A stretch of 20,135 nucleotides of DNA from a virus. Below, piece after piece: positions 6,192 to 20,135 of this stretch. The stretch spans positions 1 through 20,135 of IMG/VR virus record IMGVR_UViG_3300012203_000069, one strand, 5' to 3'. The notes beneath the pieces are model-generated. The model saw only the letters and a program-made list of their open reading frames with translations, ran no database searches and was not told the DNA's origin. Within the stretch, counting starts at the first letter, position 1. The number at the start of each line of letters is the position of its first letter. The position numbers were made by a program, and so were the translations under genes.

Positions 6192-9100
6192 ATGGCTGAC
6201 ACAGCGGTAGCTGATGAGATTCGTAAACGCAAAGCGGCTGCGGCGTTAAACGGGCAAGACGACGAGGACACGACTGATACAGAGGCCCTCGACTCGAGCT
6301 CGGGCCGAGAGTCTGCCGATACGTCCGATGAACAGCCGACGGATGAAGGATCGGCTGTACTGGCCGAGGAGGAGACAGTTGACCAAGCGGTTGTTCCCGC
6401 CGAAAAAGCTCCATCGCTAGGGTACAGATTTGTGCCGGTTGCGCCGCAGAATGTTTCGCGTGGAACATTTCGCGGTATGGGCGAGGAAGGGCTCGATGTG
6501 CCGCCTGAAACGAGACCGGTTCGACCGCCCGCGGTACCGTCGCCCTTACCTGGGTTAGAGCCTGAATATGCCGGTATTGCGGAAGGACCGGCACCGGAGA
6601 AGTTGACTCAGGTTGAGCGCGGCGAGCTGGTCAAGCCATCGGTTGAACCGGCACCTGATAAGCTGGAACAAGTTGAACGGGCGGAGTTAGTCAAGTTGCC
6701 ACCGGAAGCTCCAAGTCAACTGCCTCAGGTTGAGCGTGGCGAACTGGTAAAAGTTCCTCCGGGTACGGCGCCGCGTGCTCAAGCGATTCCTACTGCGCCA
6801 GCTGTTGGTCCTGCCGGGGCTGTAACACCTTTCATGGGCGAGGAAGGCTTGGATGTCACGCCTACCCCGCCAAAGGTTCAGCGGGCTTTAGGCTACAAGT
6901 TTGTGCCGGTAGCGCCGCCAGCTCAGCCGCTCGGCCCTGGGACAGAGGCTGATGTTACCAAGCCGCAAGTGCCGCAGCCAGGGACACAAGCTGATGTTGG
7001 CGGGGTAAGAACGCCAGCAACCGGGCAGGCTTCTGATTTCGCTAATCGAGCCCAGCAATGGCAGACGGCCATGCAGGCATACGGATTTAATGCGCGAATA
7101 AACCCAGACGGGTCGTGGGTGGGAACCGGGCCTGAGGGCAAAGAGGTGACGCCGGAGCAAAACAAGGGACTCTATCAGTTCGGGGCGCTCCTTTCGAAGC
7201 AGTACGGATTCAGTGGGCAGGAAACGAAAATTGACCAATTAGGGGATGTTAGAGCGCCAGCCAAGCCAGTTACCCAAGCCAAGGCAGAGCAGGTAGTTAC
7301 CGAAGAGCCAGCGATCACTAACCAGGCGCAGCCAGGATCTTATAGGCCGTATCAGGGTGCAGGCCAGCGAGTAATAAAGAACATCATCATTCATTCTAGT
7401 GACGGGTCTGAGAAGGGCGATATCAACACCCTGACTGGCGGAGACCCCGATCACAAGGTGTCCGCCCATTACTACACGACCAAAGATGGACGCAGTCTCC
7501 ATTTCGTTGCTGACAATGACATTGCTTATCATGCTGGGGATAACATCAATCCATCGCAGTATAGTAACGGGGTCACAATCGGGATTGAGCAGGAACACAT
7601 TGATGGCCAGCCGTGGGCAGAGGCGGAAGTCAAGCGCACGGCTCAGACTGTTGCGGAACTCCTGCGGCGGAATCCAAATCTGACGATAGACAATGTTTTA
7701 GGCCACTCGGATATTGCACCCGAACGTAAACAGGACCCGCTTAATTTCCCTTGGGACCGGCTTCGCGCGTATGTTGCGGCGGACTTAAAGCAAGGCGCAC
7801 AACCCGGTCAGGCGACTGAAGCGCTGGGTGCTGCGCCACAAGCCCAGCCGGCAACCAAGCAGGCCAATGGGCTGTACGAGAACGAAAAGCCGCAAGATTT
7901 CCTCACCGGAAAAGCGACCACGTTTGCTACGCCCGAAGATTTGAAGAGCGGAGCCGACAACGGGGTAGGTGCATCGCGACTGGGTGGGCTCGATACAACC
8001 CAGGTGGCTGGGGTAGCGGTCCCCGAAGAAGCTTTACGGGCCAAGTACGGCAACAATTACGCGGCTTGGCGCACGGCGCGGGTTGATGTGATCGATTTAG
8101 CGACCGGCAAACGGTTGCGAGTGCCGATAGTCGATCTGGGGCCGCGAGGCGACCTGGATGCCATAGTCGACATGACGCCCTCTATTAGCAGTTACTTCGG
8201 CGGTGACAAAAACTTGTCGGTCAAGCTGGTCGATAAAGCCGGGCCGGATGTGAACAAGAATCCGCAATTGTTCGCGGATGAACAGGCAGCAATTAAGCAG
8301 GGGTTTGATTCCAGCACGTTGCAGCCCGGGGTGCAAAAGATTGTGCCCAAACTTGGGTACAAGTTTCAGCCGCAAAGCCCGGAAGGCGCTGCTCAGGCGC
8401 AGAAGGATCTGCAAACGGGAATCCAGCAGCAACAGGACACCATCTCGAAGCTACCAGAGTCAAGCAGCGGCAACGTCATCGGGTTATACAAGCGATTGGA
8501 TCAACCGGTGGAGGGTACCACATCGCAGAGCCGGGAAGCAGCTCAGGCTAGTCTCAAGACGCAGATTATCGCGGCAATGCGGGAGAAGTATCCGGAGATC
8601 AAGACCGACGATGAGGCTTGGACTAAAGCCCAGGGTACCACCGGTCCGCTGGAACTCGGGGCTGAATTTGGTTCCAAAATAATGGGATACATCCAGCAGA
8701 TTGAGTCTGTAACTAGGAAAGCTAGCGCCGGTACCGATCAGTTTGCAGTTAACCGGTTTCTTGAGACCGTGCTGCCCAAGGGCAGTGATGCCGATAAACA
8801 GGATCTCTTAACCAAGCTCTATGCGATGCCGCCTGATCAACGGGCTGCTGAGATCGAGAATCGTTTAGGCCCCGGATTCGTCGAGCCGGGTAATCCGAAT
8901 AAAGATCCCTTATACCTTTCTCAAGCTTTGACCCGGTTGCATGATCCAGCTTTCCAGCAGCGTAAAGCCGATGAGCTAACCAAATTGCAGGCTGAGATGC
9001 GTCACAATCTCAGTGATGATCCCCGGCTCAAAGGCACGCTGGCTGAAAAGGTGGTAAATAACGCGGCTCAATTAGTGACGAGCCTCCCGCAGTTTGCTAC

Positions 9101-10856
9101 CCCGGCTATGTGGCCATTGGCTTTGGCTCAGATCAACGCTCAGATGCGTGAGGCGGTTAAAGCTGAACATCCGGAGTGGGATGAAAAAACACTGGCGGAG
9201 AATGCTTCCAGAGCAACGCTCACGATGTTTTTCGGGCAATTGGGCGCTAATAAACTCATTGCGATGGGGATCGGTCCGTTGCTCGGTGGGGCTATGTCGT
9301 CCGCTAAACGCATTATTGCTCAGGCATTAGCTGCGGTTGGAGGTGGGCCGGCGATTGCTGGCGGGACGCAGGCTGCAACTAACATCGCCACTGGTCAGCC
9401 AGTCGGCAAAGGTGTGGGCGAAGCAGCCGAAAGCGGTCTGATTCAAGGTGTTTTAGGCGGATTGCCGCATGTTGGGGGAGAGATTATCGCCGCGCGTCGG
9501 GGTGCACCGGTTACCGGGCGGCCGCCTGTCACCGAGCAAGCAGCGCCGGTTACCGAGCCTCTTTCGGTCACTGAGCAAGCAGCGCCCGCGCCCGCGATGC
9601 CACCGACCCGGCCGCTGACTGCGGCTGATGTGTTAGTTGAACATCCCGATGACATCAAAGCGGCGCAAGGGGATGTGCTCAACGTGGTTGCGCACAATGT
9701 TTTTCCGGATTTAACGACTAGCGAAGCCAGGGCGGTAGCGGATCGGGTTGCACTATTATCGACCAGGAATCTCGAGACTGAACGGTTCCGGTATGAACTG
9801 GAAAAATCCTTGCCGCAAGGGGTGCCGTATAATTTCGGGGTGACTACACGCCTAATGCAGGCGTATCGCGCTTTCCAGGAAGGTCCGAGCGGATATACCG
9901 CCAAGGAAATAGCGAGCGCTGAACGGGCGTTTAACGCGCTGCGCAACCCGCAGGCCGGGATGCCTGGAGCGTTACATTTGCCAATCATGTGGCGCGAGTT
10001 ACAAGCCCGCATCCCGGAGCCAGAGCAAACTCAGCCGCCTAATCCAAAGGTCACCCAGGAAGATGTAGCGCGGCGAACGAGTGAACTATATGACGAACGC
10101 ACCAAAAATGGGCAACCCGGCACCGCTCTCTCTGATTGGACGCAAGCCCAGAAAGAACTTAGTCAGGCTACAGAACCGCCTCCGGTGACCCAGGGAGAAG
10201 CTGAACCGTGGGTGTCGGCAATCGCCAACCGGTTTACGGCTGAGCGCACGGCCAGCGGCGTACTTGGGGATGTGATCCCTGGGGAAGGATATTCTAAGGA
10301 AGAATTGTTGGCCCGAGGATTACAGATGGGCCCTGAACAAATTGCCCAGCATGTCAGCGACTTGATGAATAACCGGGGGGGCGATCCGAAGGCCCAAGCA
10401 GGAGCAGTAAGGGCCGAAGAAGCCCGGCTTAGCCAGCGATCCAATGCTGCCTCCCGCGCCTCGGAGGCTAATCCAGCCAATGGGCAGTTGCGTACTGATG
10501 CCGATAACGCGTTCAAAGATTTAACCGATTTCCACAACGGGCCGGTCGCGAAACTTAAAAACAATTGGCACGCTCAAGGCATGACGCTTCAGGGCGAAGT
10601 TCCAATCGACTTGTCCACTTTCAATGGTATGCGGGAAAAATTCCTGCGCGATGTTGGTAAACCGCCGGAGCCAAAAATGGAGCCTATCTTGCGCAAGACG
10701 GCGCAAAGAGTGCGCGATTCTGTACTTAATGACGATCAGGCTATGCGTAATTTGGGAGCTGAGATTGAAAGACAGACTGCCAGAAGAAGGTTGCCGACAG
10801 CTGATGAAGTCCGTGCTCGTATTATGGAACGAATGGGAGTGGATCCTTGTCCCTAG
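6192..10856 (+). CDS. giant internal virion protein with Amidase_2 and double-psi beta-barrel domains
   Basis: 1554 residues from ATG 6192, one base after the previous stop. Residues 1-380 are a disordered Pro/Glu-rich linker with repeated peptides (LGYRFVPVAP, GEEGLDV, QVERGELVK). Residues about 396-530 form an N-acetylmuramoyl-L-alanine amidase domain (Amidase_2/PGRP type): NIIIHSSD gives H401, VLGHSDIAP gives H505, and PERKQDPLNFPW gives K513 and D515, matching the Zn ligands (H, H, D) and catalytic Lys of the family. Residues about 570-690 look like a double-psi beta-barrel of the RlpA/expansin type (VPIVDLGPR...IVDMTPSISSYFGG). Residues about 955-1100 contain Gly/Ala-rich hydrophobic helices. 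The size and place match gp16-like ejected proteins that open peptidoglycan during DNA entry; T7 gp16 uses a transglycosylase there, this one an amidase. The C-terminal half is unassigned. Confidence 0.8.
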   Translation: MADTAVADEIRKRKAAAALNGQDDEDTTDTEALDSSSGRESADTSDEQPTDEGSAVLAEEETVDQAVVPAEKAPSLGYRFVPVAPQNVSRGTFRGMGEEGLDVPPETRPVRPPAVPSPLPGLEPEYAGIAEGPAPEKLTQVERGELVKPSVEPAPDKLEQVERAELVKLPPEAPSQLPQVERGELVKVPPGTAPRAQAIPTAPAVGPAGAVTPFMGEEGLDVTPTPPKVQRALGYKFVPVAPPAQPLGPGTEADVTKPQVPQPGTQADVGGVRTPATGQASDFANRAQQWQTAMQAYGFNARINPDGSWVGTGPEGKEVTPEQNKGLYQFGALLSKQYGFSGQETKIDQLGDVRAPAKPVTQAKAEQVVTEEPAITNQAQPGSYRPYQGAGQRVIKNIIIHSSDGSEKGDINTLTGGDPDHKVSAHYYTTKDGRSLHFVADNDIAYHAGDNINPSQYSNGVTIGIEQEHIDGQPWAEAEVKRTAQTVAELLRRNPNLTIDNVLGHSDIAPERKQDPLNFPWDRLRAYVAADLKQGAQPGQATEALGAAPQAQPATKQANGLYENEKPQDFLTGKATTFATPEDLKSGADNGVGASRLGGLDTTQVAGVAVPEEALRAKYGNNYAAWRTARVDVIDLATGKRLRVPIVDLGPRGDLDAIVDMTPSISSYFGGDKNLSVKLVDKAGPDVNKNPQLFADEQAAIKQGFDSSTLQPGVQKIVPKLGYKFQPQSPEGAAQAQKDLQTGIQQQQDTISKLPESSSGNVIGLYKRLDQPVEGTTSQSREAAQASLKTQIIAAMREKYPEIKTDDEAWTKAQGTTGPLELGAEFGSKIMGYIQQIESVTRKASAGTDQFAVNRFLETVLPKGSDADKQDLLTKLYAMPPDQRAAEIENRLGPGFVEPGNPNKDPLYLSQALTRLHDPAFQQRKADELTKLQAEMRHNLSDDPRLKGTLAEKVVNNAAQLVTSLPQFATPAMWPLALAQINAQMREAVKAEHPEWDEKTLAENASRATLTMFFGQLGANKLIAMGIGPLLGGAMSSAKRIIAQALAAVGGGPAIAGGTQAATNIATGQPVGKGVGEAAESGLIQGVLGGLPHVGGEIIAARRGAPVTGRPPVTEQAAPVTEPLSVTEQAAPAPAMPPTRPLTAADVLVEHPDDIKAAQGDVLNVVAHNVFPDLTTSEARAVADRVALLSTRNLETERFRYELEKSLPQGVPYNFGVTTRLMQAYRAFQEGPSGYTAKEIASAERAFNALRNPQAGMPGALHLPIMWRELQARIPEPEQTQPPNPKVTQEDVARRTSELYDERTKNGQPGTALSDWTQAQKELSQATEPPPVTQGEAEPWVSAIANRFTAERTASGVLGDVIPGEGYSKEELLARGLQMGPEQIAQHVSDLMNNRGGDPKAQAGAVRAEEARLSQRSNAASRASEANPANGQLRTDADNAFKDLTDFHNGPVAKLKNNWHAQGMTLQGEVPIDLSTFNGMREKFLRDVGKPPEPKMEPILRKTAQRVRDSVLNDDQAMRNLGAEIERQTARRRLPTADEVRARIMERMGVDPCP

Positions 10857-16280: not shown

Positions 16281-16392
16281 CCGCTGGCGGGCCCGGCGCG
16301 TGCTCAAAGCGCTATGGCTATCTTACCCGGAGCATTCGGAAAGCCGCCGCTACTATGAATGTATCTACGATGCAACTTTTTTCCTTGCCTAA
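16246..16392 (+). CDS. small basic protein, unknown
   Basis: 48 residues from ATG 16246, overlapping the RHH gene by 35 bases in another frame and sharing the A of its TAA stop with the ATG of the ATPase gene (TAATG, 16390-16394). Sequence: MKLHSRIHQINNRWRARRVL and on to KALWLSYPEHSESRRYYECI. It is basic and helical with no known family. The tight overlap at both ends supports a real coupled gene. Confidence 0.45.
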   Translation: MKLHSRIHQINNRWRARRVLKALWLSYPEHSESRRYYECIYDATFFLA

Positions 16393-17240
16393 TGAATAAC
16401 GATAATCAAACAACTACGCTCGAACCGGGGCAGGCAACCGAAGTAAATCCATTTGCCGAGCAAGCTGCCCAAGAAGCGGCTAAGCCCAAGAAGCTCGGCA
16501 TCCTATCCCAGGTTACCACTCGGAAACGGCGCCGTCCGGTGTTTGGCGTGGTCTACGGGCCCCCTGGAATCGGTAAATCGACTTTCGGGACAACTGCTCC
16601 TAACCCGATCTTTCTTCAAGTTGAGCGGGGGCTCGATCAGATCACGATTCCGAAATTGCCGATCCCCAAGGATTTTAACCAACTCTACGTCCAGGTTGAT
16701 GCACTTGACCGGGAAGAACACGGTTACCAGAGTATTATTCTGGATACCTTGGATGCGACCGAGGTCTTGATCTGGCAACGGGTATGTTCTGAGGGCAAGG
16801 TTAAATCAATCGAGGATTATGGCGGCGGGTATGGCAAAGGTTATGTCAGAGCCAGGGAAATCTGGACCGGATTACTAACTAAGTTCAGCGAAATGAGCGA
16901 GCGTTTTAATGTGATCCTGCTCGCCCATAGCCATCTCAAAACTGTCAATGATCCGATGCAGTCTGCAGCCTATGACTTGCACAAGATCAAGATCCATGAC
17001 AAAAGCGCCGAGATAATCCGGCAGATGGTGGATCTGATTTGTTTCGCTAATCTGGATGTATCGATCATCAAGGAGAGCCAGAAAGCCCGGAAAGGGCGCG
17101 GGATAATCAGCGAGGACCGGCTGATGTGGACAGCGCCGACGACTGGGATTGAGGCGAAAAACCGATATGACCTTGACAACCCAATTCCTTTTAGCTGGGC
17201 GGCTCTAGAGAAAGGGGTGAACGATTTTTATGACCGATAA
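16392..17240 (+). CDS. phage RecA-like AAA ATPase (Sak4 / AAA_24 type recombinase)
   Basis: 282 residues from ATG 16392, translation-coupled to the small gene before it. Walker A is GPPGIGKST (residues 56-64), Walker B is in YQSIILDTLD (D118), and NVILLAHSHLK is the downstream strand with a polar sensor. The family is the AAA_24 phage nucleotide-binding proteins, including Sak4, a single-domain RecA/Rad51-like annealing-exchange ATPase used in phage recombination. An SSB-like gene and a RecB/Cas4-like nuclease follow at once, the usual partners. The stop overlaps the next start by 11 bases. Confidence 0.85.
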   Translation: MNNDNQTTTLEPGQATEVNPFAEQAAQEAAKPKKLGILSQVTTRKRRRPVFGVVYGPPGIGKSTFGTTAPNPIFLQVERGLDQITIPKLPIPKDFNQLYVQVDALDREEHGYQSIILDTLDATEVLIWQRVCSEGKVKSIEDYGGGYGKGYVRAREIWTGLLTKFSEMSERFNVILLAHSHLKTVNDPMQSAAYDLHKIKIHDKSAEIIRQMVDLICFANLDVSIIKESQKARKGRGIISEDRLMWTAPTTGIEAKNRYDLDNPIPFSWAALEKGVNDFYDR

Positions 17241-17817
17241 AACTTACAAATACCGAGGCGCGCCCGAATCTCGGGCTTTTGGCGTACTCCAACCAGGTGA
17301 TTATAATTTTGTTATCAGTAGTGCGGACGCGCCATACTACAAGAATAACAAATGGATTTTGGAGGTTAGACTAACTATCCAGCCGCAGAGTGTGTTAGTG
17401 TACGCTCATCCGTGGTCCGGTATCGATAAGAATGGCGAAGACCGCGATGGGATTGCCGAATTTCTCCTGGCGGTCAATCGGGCACCGGCACCGGGCGATG
17501 AACCGGAGTGGGGCGCTTTGATTGGGGCCAAGGGCAAATGCCGGCTAAAAATCGAGCCTGACCAGAATAATATCGACCAAAACAAGGTAGCATTTTTCCA
17601 TCGGCCGAAACAGGCTGGTCCACAAATGACCGGTCAACCGCCACGCGACTATAGCCCGGGAGACGTCGCTCGAGGACATTCGGCTGAGGACATTCGACCG
17701 AGCTCAGTCGAGGGCCTCAGTCGAAGCCCGCAGGCCTCACAGGAAAAGCGATCGGCTGGACTTGGGGGAGGGGAAATCGAACCTAATGATATTCCGTTCG
17801 CTTGTGATCGTGGATGA
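17230..17817 (+). CDS. SSB-like protein (DUF669-type) of the Sak4 module
   Basis: 195 residues from ATG 17230, overlapping the ATPase gene by 11 bases; AAAGGGGTGA upstream serves as ribosome site. The N-terminal about 130 residues are beta-rich (FGVLQPGDYNFVISSADAPY, KWILEVRLTIQ, GKCRLKIEP), fitting the OB-like fold of DUF669 phage proteins that pair with Sak4. The C-terminal part is low-complexity Ser/Arg/Gly. It ends EIEPNDIPFACDRG; the NDIPF resembles the acidic DDIPF tip by which bacterial SSB recruits partners, though here it is not quite terminal. The stop overlaps the nuclease start (ATGA). Confidence 0.6.
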   Translation: MTDKTYKYRGAPESRAFGVLQPGDYNFVISSADAPYYKNNKWILEVRLTIQPQSVLVYAHPWSGIDKNGEDRDGIAEFLLAVNRAPAPGDEPEWGALIGAKGKCRLKIEPDQNNIDQNKVAFFHRPKQAGPQMTGQPPRDYSPGDVARGHSAEDIRPSSVEGLSRSPQASQEKRSAGLGGGEIEPNDIPFACDRG

Positions 17818-18962
17818 AACTTACCATGACCCACGAGACAATCGACGAGCGCATGGGCCTGCCTTCAGCATCTTCATGGAGAAGGTTCGAACTCTGCGCA
17901 GGTTCCTGGCAACTGGAACAGGAAGCCAAACGGTTTAATCAGGAAGCCCACGTGGGGAGCGCTGCAGCCAAACGCGGTGCACTAATTCACGCATGGCTGG
18001 CCGGTGAAGTCGACGAGAGCGGCAACGAAATCAAGCTCGATGACTCGGAAGTAGCCACGGCCGATTTTCTCCAGGAACGCGCGACCGATCAAGTTAAGCG
18101 GATTTTTGGCGATGAACCAACGCAACAACTTTCCGAGAAACGGTTATGGTTCACCCTCAATGGCCAGTTGCGGGCCAGCGGGCAATTTGACCGGTGCATT
18201 TATACGGCGAGCGTCGCCCTGGTCCAGGATTTTAAGACCGGCTGGAGCGAGCCGGACCCGGCGGAGCAGAATGCTCAAATGAAATTCCTTGCCGTGGTCG
18301 TAGCGCTCCATTTGCCGCGAACCTTGCGCAAAGTAATCGTCCAGGTCATTTCCGGGCCGCACGGAGTAAGCGAGGCTACCTATGATTACCCGGCGCTGGC
18401 CACGGCTTACAGTGACATCCTGGGCACGCTGCGGGCCATCCAGGACGAGCGGGCACCGCTGAATCCATCGGTGGAAGCCTGCCGGTATTGCCCGGCAATT
18501 AATGTGTGCCCCGCGGTTAAGAAGCTTGTGCCGACAATGAGCGAAGCCGAGGCGTTGCCCGATGGTACAGGCGCCGCCGATTTGCTTGGTTCACTCGAAA
18601 TACTGCAGAAACGCATAGACGCAATCCGGGAATATTACGCCGGCCGGTTAACCGAAGATCCGAGCTACGAGATCCCGGGATGGGCAATGGTTCCCGGGGT
18701 GGTCCGGCGCGAGGTAACCGATTGGGAGGCCGCCCGCCAGCGCTTAGGCGAATGGCTTGAGATAGAAGATATCCAGGGCGCGGCCAATTACCGGTTGGGC
18801 GATCTGGAAAAGGCACTGGGCAGGAAATTGCAGCTTCGCGGCAAAGAGCTCAAGGCGCGCATGAACGAAATTTTGCAAGGGCTCTTGGAAGAGAAGTCCA
18901 ACGCGGCTAGCCTGAAGCGGATCTCGGGAAAGCCGAAGTTAACTTCACTGGAAAACGTGTAA
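17814..18962 (+). CDS. Cas4/RecB-like PD-(D/E)XK nuclease with Fe-S cluster (DUF2800 type)
   Basis: 382 residues from ATG 17814, which overlaps the SSB-like stop; a second ATG at 17826 (MTHETIDERMGLPSASS) is also plausible. Nuclease motifs run in order: RGALIHAWLAG (H59), ASGQFDRC (D126), VQDFKTG (D139, K141), EQNAQMKFLA (Q155). Four cysteines, C28 in RRFELCAGSW and C223, C226, C232 in CRYCPAINVC, have the 1+3 spacing of the [4Fe-4S] cluster in Cas4 and AddB. This is the DUF2800 phage family, a RecB-like exonuclease likely supplying single strands to the Sak4 pair. The opening codons match CRISPR spacer 2 of this same window. Confidence 0.85.
   Translation: MKLTMTHETIDERMGLPSASSWRRFELCAGSWQLEQEAKRFNQEAHVGSAAAKRGALIHAWLAGEVDESGNEIKLDDSEVATADFLQERATDQVKRIFGDEPTQQLSEKRLWFTLNGQLRASGQFDRCIYTASVALVQDFKTGWSEPDPAEQNAQMKFLAVVVALHLPRTLRKVIVQVISGPHGVSEATYDYPALATAYSDILGTLRAIQDERAPLNPSVEACRYCPAINVCPAVKKLVPTMSEAEALPDGTGAADLLGSLEILQKRIDAIREYYAGRLTEDPSYEIPGWAMVPGVVRREVTDWEAARQRLGEWLEIEDIQGAANYRLGDLEKALGRKLQLRGKELKARMNEILQGLLEEKSNAASLKRISGKPKLTSLENV
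17824..17855 (+). other. degenerate protospacer matching CRISPR spacer 2
   Basis: Aligned to spacer 2 read on the minus strand (from 14078 down to 14047), this 32-base stretch agrees at 24 positions. Spacer positions 10-32 agree at 22 of 23 (core CGAGACAAT(T/C)GACGAGCG), while 7 of the first 9 positions differ. The three bases before it (TTA) do not resemble an AAG-like I-E PAM. In spacer frame the codons read [10 protein letters not shown], in the gene MTHETIDERM. Confidence 0.85.
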
Positions 18963-18975
18963 CCTGAGCTATTTT

Positions 18976-19788
18976 ATGGACCAGAAGAAGAAATCGGAAG
19001 TATCGCGCGAGACCCGTTCGATTCTGTTAGACAAATTGTTGCAAGATTACGAGTTAACAAAAGGGGATATTGCTGACGCAGTCGAACTCTATTATGACGC
19101 CCAAAAACTTAGAATTATCCATGCCAATAAGGAGCGGAGCGAAGGCGTCTCGCCGATGAAAGACTGGTTCGATTACTGGCTAAACATCGGCGAGAAGGTG
19201 TTGATATCCAAGCTTAAGAAATGGGTCGAAAGCCCGGAATCGCCTCTAGAGGCTAAGTGGGCTTACGACCAGTGGGGGATCGGGCCGATTATCGCTTCCG
19301 GGTTAGCTGCGCATATTGATATAGAGAAAGCGGCCACGATTTCGGCTCTCTGGAAGTTTGCCGGACAGGCGCCGGGATTCGATCGTAAAACCAAGGGGAG
19401 CAAGCTGCCGTACAATGGGCGATTGAAGACCTTGTGTTGGAAGCTGGGAGAATCGTTTGTCAAGGTCAGCGGGAAGGAAGGGGCAATCTATGGCGGCTTA
19501 TACGTGCAATTCAAAACTGATGAGGTTTCTCGTAATGAAAATGGCCAGTATGTCAAGACGGCAGCCCTAGAGTTAACTAATAAAAAATTCAAGCCGGACA
19601 CCGTGACCAGGAAACGGTTAGAACAAGGCAAATTGAGTGATGGGCATCTGCATGCCAGAGCTAAGCGGCGAACGATCAAATTGTTTCTAGCGCACTATTG
19701 GCTGAAAGGGCGTGAGGCGAAAGGGTTGCCGGTGACAGACCCATATGTGTTCACGGTAGGCGGACATAGCAAGGAGCATCAAATTTAA
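18976..19788 (+). CDS. Tas-like protein of a TIGR-Tas system (TasA type, IS110/Nop-related)
   Basis: 270 residues from ATG 18976, 13 bases after the nuclease stop. Residues 1-95 are helical and charged (KLLQDYELTKGDIADAVELY). Residues 95-165 resemble the HhH domain of IS110/IS116 transposases: WGIGPIIASGLAAHID, ISALWKFAGQAPG, then KLPYNGRLKTLCWKLGESF. The C-terminus has SDGHLHARAKRRTIKLFLAHYW and DPYVFTVGGHSKEH, a pattern I recall from phage proteins now classed as Tas, RNA-guided effectors with a Nop-type RNA-binding fold. The IS110 DEDD catalytic domain, HNH and RuvC motifs are absent, so it looks like the nuclease-less TasA type. A TIGR-like array begins 12 bases after its stop, which strongly supports the call. 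With no nuclease of its own it may block targets or recruit another enzyme. Confidence 0.8.
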   Translation: MDQKKKSEVSRETRSILLDKLLQDYELTKGDIADAVELYYDAQKLRIIHANKERSEGVSPMKDWFDYWLNIGEKVLISKLKKWVESPESPLEAKWAYDQWGIGPIIASGLAAHIDIEKAATISALWKFAGQAPGFDRKTKGSKLPYNGRLKTLCWKLGESFVKVSGKEGAIYGGLYVQFKTDEVSRNENGQYVKTAALELTNKKFKPDTVTRKRLEQGKLSDGHLHARAKRRTIKLFLAHYWLKGREAKGLPVTDPYVFTVGGHSKEHQI

Positions 19789-19800
19789 GCCATGCTTCAG

Positions 19801-20135
19801 GAGAAACCCACGACGAGCGAGCGAGCCACCCTGACGGAGAAACCCAGGGAAGATGAGCGAGCCAAGACACAGGAGAAACCCAGCGAGTTAGAGCGAGCCA
19901 TATCAACAGAGAAACCCAGGTTTTGAGAGCGAGCCACAGTTTGCGAGAAACCCACTGTAAGGGAGCGAGCCATGATCCATGAGAAACCCAGTGGTTAAGA
20001 GCGAGCCAGAGGGATCGAGTAATCCACATCAAGAAGAACGAGTCACAAGCAAAGAGAAAACCACAAAGAGTGAGCGAGCCAAGCTTGACGAGAAAACCAC
20101 AGTAAGTGAGCGAGCCACCCGGACGGAGAAACCCA
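19801..20135. repeat. TIGR-like array: two alternating decamers with 8-base spacers, runs off window end
   Basis: Ten copies of GAGAAACCCA (starts 19801, 19837, 19873, 19909, 19945, 19981, 20017, 20054, 20090, 20126) alternate with nine copies of GAGCGAGCCA (19819, 19855, 19891, 19927, 19963, 19999, 20036, 20072, 20108). Seventeen of the 18 gaps are exactly 8 bases and one (20027-20035) is 9. Gap sequences look unrelated to each other. The unit is 18 bases and the pair 36, equal to the reported tigRNA length with two short spacers. The decamers share 7 of 10 bases. Variants are GAGTAATCCA (20017), GAACGAGTCA (20036) and GAGAAAACCA (20054, 20090). The last copy ends on the last base of the window, so the array continues. 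The transcribed strand is not known; the Tas-like gene reads rightward into it. Confidence 0.9.

What the first reader, a model, noticed from the sequence alone, without database searches (positions are those of the whole stretch)
19801..20135. Fixed-phase architecture: edge and loop decamers share a core but are kept distinct
The two decamers differ at only positions 4, 5 and 7, yet alternate without error through 19 units while the 8-base gaps vary freely. This strict alternation means the dimer, not the monomer, is the unit of selection, as expected for a guide with one edge motif and one loop motif. The gap length is 8 here if all ten repeat bases count as repeat; functional guides could include a flanking base to give 9.
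Basis: seen in the sequence. Interest (0 to 1): 0.75.

Follow-up and report, generated by a model that had tools for sequence, protein, structure and literature searches.

The report
Phage RNA-guide array with TasA gene
The alternating ten-letter repeats are the start of a phage-carried guide-RNA array of the TIGR-Tas type, sitting directly behind the gene for its DNA-targeting protein, and a related bacterial genome offers a first candidate for what such arrays aim at: a rival phage satellite.

Summary
From 19801 to the contig end, 19 decamers (10 GAGAAACCCA-type, 9 GAGCGAGCCA-type) alternate without a slip. However, 4 of the 19 are variants, one gap is 9 nt, and "19 units" are 19 decamers (about 9 dimers). 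The array starts with a truncated repeat abutting the stop codon of a 270-aa gene.

That protein is TasA, the nuclease-less Nop-domain effector of TIGR-Tas systems (Faure et al. 2025). Its profile hits solved TasR (E=7e-29) and TasH (2e-21), and its predicted fold matches them best. The guide-array reading is therefore supported, but the kind is known.

In related viral loci the same layout recurs. Both predicted edge-repeat base pairs covary. Spacers differ even from the nearest relative (92% identical TasA) in all but one unit.

New leads come from relatives. The nearest relative carries three loop repeats split by hairpins. In Acidobacteriaceae KBS 96, one of six units of a prophage TasA array matches exactly 16 bp in a satellite-like element's excisionase-type gene; a second matches 14/16 in its replication gene, 0.9 kb away. 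This suggests silencing of a rival element. It rests on one genome; tests in two other genomes and in 1.6 Mb of related phages were negative.

The parts
18976..19788 (+). tasA: 270-aa Nop-domain protein without nuclease domain (the effector)
   Evidence: PHROG 4285 'transposase' E=2e-34; profile of 33 relatives hits TasR 9mty E=6.6e-29 and TasH 21kl E=1.6e-21; AlphaFold2 pLDDT 87, Foldseek best hits TasR and TasH
19789..19792 (+). 5'-truncated first edge repeat (GCCA) directly after the tasA stop codon
   Evidence: sequence; truncated first edge repeat is typical of TIGR arrays
19793..20135 (+). TIGR dual-repeat array, 36-nt period, runs off the contig end
19801..19810 (+). loop repeat GAGAAACCCA (first of 10: 19801, 19837, 19873, 19909, 19945, 19981, 20017 variant, 20054 variant, 20090 variant, 20126)
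19819..19828 (+). edge repeat GAGCGAGCCA (first of 9: 19819, 19855, 19891, 19927, 19963, 19999, 20036 variant, 20072, 20108)
   Evidence: pairs 3-8 and 4-7 covary across 16 edge types
20036..20081 (+). unit conserved with the nearest relative L002 (spacers CAAGC[A/C]AA and CAAAGAGT); in L002 its loop repeat is interrupted by a hairpin
16359..17240 (+). Sak4-like recombinase gene upstream of tasA (context)
   Evidence: PF13479 E=4e-42; PHROG 124 E=2e-38
17814..18962 (+). PD-(D/E)XK exonuclease gene directly upstream of tasA (context; adjacency seen only in close relatives)
   Evidence: PF12705/PF10926, PHROG 69; adjacency in L002, L004, L005, L006

Best explanation
This is a phage TIGR-TasA locus. 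The array is transcribed together with or just after tasA and cut in the middle of each edge repeat into 36-nt tigRNAs (edge half, spacer A, loop, spacer B, edge half). A TasA dimer holds one tigRNA through the GA(G)/(C)CA motifs of edge and loop; the two 8-nt spacers pair with opposite strands of one contiguous site of about 16 bp. Because TasA lacks a nuclease, binding most likely blocks transcription or replication rather than cutting, and the likely targets are rival mobile elements in the same host. Shown here: gene identity, array anatomy, covarying edge pairs, spacer turnover. Inferred from the published system: processing, two-strand pairing, DNA binding. Inferred with weak support: the role against rival elements. 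The stated confidence is for the identity as TIGR-TasA guide array; for the rival-element role alone it is about 0.45.
For: Protein. Array. Same architecture in 178 of 215 related locus sequences, many of which are repeat fetches of one contig. Edge base pairs 3-8 and 4-7: 96.9% of cells paired, both with double-sided changes, 0 of 500 shuffles as high. Spacers differ between close relatives while the repeats stay. Target lead in KBS 96: one of six units exact, gap 0, in the HTH_17/excisionase-type gene of an element with integrase, Xre regulator, replication protein, small terminase, capsid and head protease; a second unit 14/16 in its replication gene. Two of 6 KBS 96 units match the element with <=2 mismatches, against 3 of 1069 units from other arrays and 0 of 30 mispaired A/B combinations.
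Against: No expression or binding data for this array. The target lead rests on one genome. Apart from unit 2, the KBS 96 units have no exact site in the genome. Seven Halomonas units found nothing with <=2 mismatches, gap 0, around its integrases, and four Propionivibrio units had no exact host site. About 1,075 spacer pairs are not enriched in capsid-relatives of the satellite, nor 407 in related phages. The window's own spacers have no known target.
Confidence: 0.9

Rival explanations
1. The TasA array regulates the phage's own genes or those of close relatives (self-regulation or superinfection control).
For: TasA is thought to bind without cutting, so self-targeting would not be lethal (inference from the discussion in PMC12045711).
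Against: 407 spacer pairs searched in 1.65 Mb of their own and related contigs: exact and one-mismatch sites in the published geometry are no more frequent than for re-paired spacers or wrong orientations.
Confidence: 0.1
2. The array guides TasA to bend DNA as an aid to phage recombination or integration, in line with its place behind Sak4-like and exonuclease genes.
For: Sak4 and exonuclease genes lie directly upstream in the window and in L004 and L006, and the exonuclease in L002; the paper suggests DNA-bending help to integrases.
Against: By tblastn with the window's proteins the exonuclease was found in only 5 of 228 tasA-bearing locus sequences (distant homologues would be missed), and spacers that change between close relatives do not fit a fixed att-site role.
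Confidence: 0.1
3. A CRISPR-like mini-array or a coding tandem repeat unrelated to TIGR.
For: Short repeats with variable spacers look superficially CRISPR-like.
Against: Two alternating 10-nt repeats, 8-nt spacers, an adjacent TasR/TasH homologue and compensatory changes in the edge repeat; no Rfam hit in the array.
Confidence: 0.01

Closest known systems
TIGR-TasA systems (Faure et al. 2025, PMC12045711; e.g. Flavonifractor plautii FpTIGR)
   Same: Solo Nop-domain protein beside a dual-repeat array, 36-nt unit, truncated first edge repeat, box-D-like/box-C-like motifs in both repeats, extra base pair in the edge repeat
   Different: Spacers of 8 nt rather than 9; box D reads GAN rather than the UG given for TasR arrays; three loop repeats of the closest relative carry hairpin inserts
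TIGR-TasH of Salicola phage CGphi29 (TasH structures such as PDB 21kl, 9w04) and TIGR-TasR (PDB 9mty)
   Same: Homologous Nop domain by sequence and fold; 8-nt spacers in the Salicola array
   Different: No HNH or RuvC domain here: the TasR match starts at TasR residue 120
IS110-family transposases with bridge RNA (IS621, PDB 8wt6/8wt9)
   Same: Nop-like RNA-binding domain (sequence E=3e-4; weaker fold match)
   Different: No DEDD catalytic domain, no transposon ends, and an array instead of one bridge RNA
Nuclease-less CRISPR effectors (type IV, V-M)
   Same: Works like: RNA-guided binding without cleavage, carried by mobile elements against others (comparison made in PMC12045711)
   Different: Unrelated protein and guide architecture

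Membership tests
TIGR-Tas | Nop-domain Tas protein encoded next to the array | tested here: met
   Profile E=6.6e-29 to TasR, 1.6e-21 to TasH; Foldseek top 10 all TasR/TasH; the ORF ends directly before the array
TIGR-Tas | Two distinct 8-12-nt repeats that alternate, separated by about 9-nt spacers, 36-nt unit | tested here: met
   10-nt repeats, 8-nt spacers, period 36; 8-nt spacers are published for SpTIGR
[quoted passage not shown]
   GCCA at 19789-19792
[quoted passage not shown]
   Window array is cut by the contig end; L002 ends with a truncated edge repeat, no clear terminator seen by eye
TIGR-Tas | Box C/D-like motifs shared by edge and loop, with an additional covarying pair in the edge | tested here: met
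   GAN...CCA in both; pairs 3-8 and 4-7 covary in the edge
TIGR-Tas | Array RNA processed to 36-nt tigRNAs bound by Tas | not testable with these tools
   needs RNA sequencing of the pulled-down protein
TIGR-Tas | Two spacers pair with opposite strands of one target | tested here: inconclusive
   One exact and one 14/16 site in that geometry in KBS 96; no target for the window's spacers
TasA subtype | No HNH or RuvC domain | tested here: met
   270 aa, no Pfam hit, all-helical model, TasR alignment starts after its N-terminal nuclease part
CRISPR-Cas | One long repeat type and a Cas effector | tested here: not met
   Two alternating 10-nt repeats; the adjacent gene is TasA
IS110 transposon | DEDD domain and element with bridge RNA | tested here: not met
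   IS621/ISCro4 match by sequence only in the Nop-like part (residues about 39-131 of the profile)

The most novel reading that the evidence does not exclude
Nuclease-less TIGR-TasA arrays of phages are guide libraries against rival elements, phage satellites in particular: the KBS 96 prophage array would silence the excisionase-type and replication genes of a satellite whose capsid protein is 68% identical to that prophage's own. This would be a first natural target of a TIGR array and a function for TasA.
Probability: 0.3. Interest if true: 0.85.

Novelty: new member of a known kind. Interest (0 to 1): 0.5.

Why it matters
TIGR-Tas is a recent class of RNA-guided DNA-binding systems whose natural targets and TasA function the discovery paper calls open questions. 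This locus and its relatives give an 8-nt-spacer TasA clade with clean covariation and an array that mixes plain and hairpin-bearing loop repeats, which the paper treats as separate array types. They also give one testable target in a deposited genome.

Tried and rejected
(1) Codon-phased spacer differences (targets as coding alleles): looked promising on the first set, but with the larger set only 2 of 7 within-spacer difference pairs of two-mismatch units are in phase (expected about 1 in 4), so dropped. (2) Self or related-phage targets: no enrichment. (3) Satellite capsid-relatives in IMG/VR as targets of all arrays: no enrichment. (4) Halomonas NO4 and Propionivibrio arrays against their hosts: nothing beyond chance. 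(5) Database scans for 16-mers: the KBS 96 target occurs in 33 viral contigs in other contexts and the shared unit in at least 120, so such scans mostly return background. (6) Rfam in the array: no hit.

Full report
WHAT IS THERE. The last 335 bases of the window hold 19 decamers that alternate strictly between a loop type (consensus GAGAAACCCA, 10 copies, 7 exact) and an edge type (GAGCGAGCCA, 9 copies, 8 exact), separated by 8-nt gaps except one of 9 nt. 'Without error' is too strong (four variant copies), and the 19 are decamers, not dimers. Before the first full repeat lie one more spacer and GCCA (19789-19792), a truncated edge repeat, directly behind the TAA of the ORF at 18976-19788. 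The window is the complete virus record, so the array is cut off by the assembly.

THE PROTEIN. The 270-aa product of 18976-19788 has no Pfam hit and falls in a PHROG labelled 'transposase'. A profile of 33 relatives (A1) finds the solved TIGR-TasR (9mty, E=6.6e-29) and TasH (21kl, E=1.6e-21), then IS621 and ISCro4 in the Nop-like part only. The AlphaFold2 model (pLDDT 87) has TasR and TasH chains as its ten best PDB matches, followed by IS621/ISCro4. The TasR alignment starts at TasR residue 120, after its N-terminal nuclease part, so this is TasA, the solo Nop form described by Faure et al. 2025 (PMC12045711).

THE FAMILY OF ARRAYS. Scans of viral contigs returned 200-odd tasA-bearing locus sequences, many of them repeat fetches of the same contig. 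In 178 of 215 a dual-repeat array was found de novo, nearly always with a 36-nt period. Chaining gave 2006 units, 1290 distinct, with 4485 of 4708 neighbouring repeats alternating; some of the rest stem from mis-assigned repeat types in my parser. Edge repeats vary between loci (GAGCGAGCCA, GAATGAATCA, GATCGAGACA, GAACGAGTCA, GAGAGATCCA, GAGTGAACCA and others). Predicted pairs 3-8 and 4-7 hold in 96.9% of cells over 16 edge types, with double-sided changes at both pairs. None of 500 shuffles, and none of the slid structures, came close. A caution: edge and loop were told apart partly by pairability and five badly framed or non-pairing edge strings of the 21 were left out, so the percentage paired leans upwards; the range of compensatory pair types (GC, AU, UA; CG, UA, AU) is less affected. 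This matches the published extra edge pair. Loop repeats lack the 4-7 pair in most types.

THE NEAREST RELATIVE. L002 (TasA 92% identical) holds the complete array: 26 decamers, 25 of 25 alternating, ending in a truncated edge repeat. Only one unit is shared with the window (CAAGC[A/C]AA / CAAAGAGT); all others differ. Three loop repeats are split by inserts of 28, 28 and about 55 nt that fold as hairpins (-15.6 kcal/mol, z -2.2, for the shorter; -27.2, z -3.3, for the longer), leaving the flanking GAG and AACCC in place. The window's copy of the shared unit has a plain loop. Similar TTCGAC...GCTCAG palindromes are scattered in that contig, so a dispersed palindrome is a likely source (inference). 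The paper describes dual-repeat and stem-loop arrays as two types with a possible intermediate; this array mixes both.

SPACERS AND TARGETS. Unit pairs that differ at one or two of 16 spacer positions are far more common than for re-paired spacers (19 and 10, against 0 and about 0.2): arrays drift by point changes and unit duplication. By my count from that list, 37 changes fall on spacer positions 3-4 only twice; this was noticed after the fact and not tested on new data. The published targeting rule (spacers A and B on opposite strands) predicts sites [A][rcB]. No excess of such sites was found in 1.65 Mb of the arrays' own and related contigs.

A CANDIDATE TARGET. A genome scan placed TasA relatives in Acidobacteria (MAG, 62%), in Acidobacteriaceae bacterium KBS 96 (41%, a prophage), Halomonas NO4 and others. 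The KBS 96 prophage array has six units. Allowing gaps of 0-2, one has an exact site in the 6.7-Mb genome: TAAAAGCAGAATCGAA at 6329962-6329977, gap 0 (the other five: none). By my arithmetic about 0.02 such gap-0 sites, or 0.06 with gaps 0-2, are expected for six units. The site lies in the first codons of an 86-aa HTH_17/excisionase-type gene of a small element: tyrosine integrase, Xre regulator, two HTH_17 genes, a replication-initiation-like gene, small terminase, HK97 capsid and head protease, with no large terminase or portal gene recognised among the genes tested. I read it as a phage satellite; attachment sites were not found. Its capsid is 68% identical to one in the TasA-bearing prophage contig (L453). 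A second unit matches 14 of 16 bp, gap 0, both mismatches at the first two bases of spacer A, in the replication gene 0.9 kb away. Within the element, 2 of 6 KBS 96 units reach <=2 mismatches against 3 of 1069 units from other arrays and 0 of 30 mispaired combinations of the same spacers. Leaving out the unit that led me there, the other five still match better than random sets (P about 0.006). In 0.9 Mb around the KBS 96 integrases the six units give three such sites in all, no more than random units would (about 4.6), but two of the three lie in this element. This is suggestive, not proof: one genome, chosen after a search, and two other genomes gave nothing.

VERDICT. The finding is real, its interpretation as an edge-plus-loop guide array is right, and it belongs to TIGR-Tas with the sequence-testable features met except the uninspectable 3' end. 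What would be new is not the array but the target lead and the hybrid loop repeats in relatives.

Noticed in passing
L002:1534-1571, 1670-1707, 1733-1797: Three loop repeats of the nearest relative's array are interrupted by hairpin inserts (28, 28, about 55 nt), a mixture of dual-repeat and stem-loop TIGR array types.
   Followed up: partly
L292:9963-9978 and 9053-9068 (KBS 96, about 6.33 Mb): Candidate targets of two units of the KBS 96 prophage TasA array, in the excisionase-type and replication genes of a satellite-like element.
   Followed up: partly
spacers of near-identical units in L002-L275: Differences between near-identical units avoid spacer positions 3-4 (2 of 37 changes), possibly a seed constraint; seen after the fact.
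   Followed up: no
window 20036-20045: Variant edge repeat GAACGAGTCA keeps the 3-8 pair by a G-C to A-U double change within the same copy.
   Followed up: partly
window 17692-17730: A REP-like palindrome (TTCGACCGAGCTCAGTCGA) inside the ORF at 17230-17817; similar palindromes are scattered in the relative's contig.
   Followed up: no
window 18976-19788: PHROG 4285, labelled 'transposase / integration and excision', matches TasA and is probably misnamed.
   Followed up: yes
window 6192-10856: 1554-aa protein with an endolysin/amidase domain inside (residues about 385-640).
   Followed up: no
L051, L055, L064, L153, L155: TasA arrays with a 34-nt period, probably from a shorter loop repeat (e.g. 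GAACATCA).
   Followed up: no
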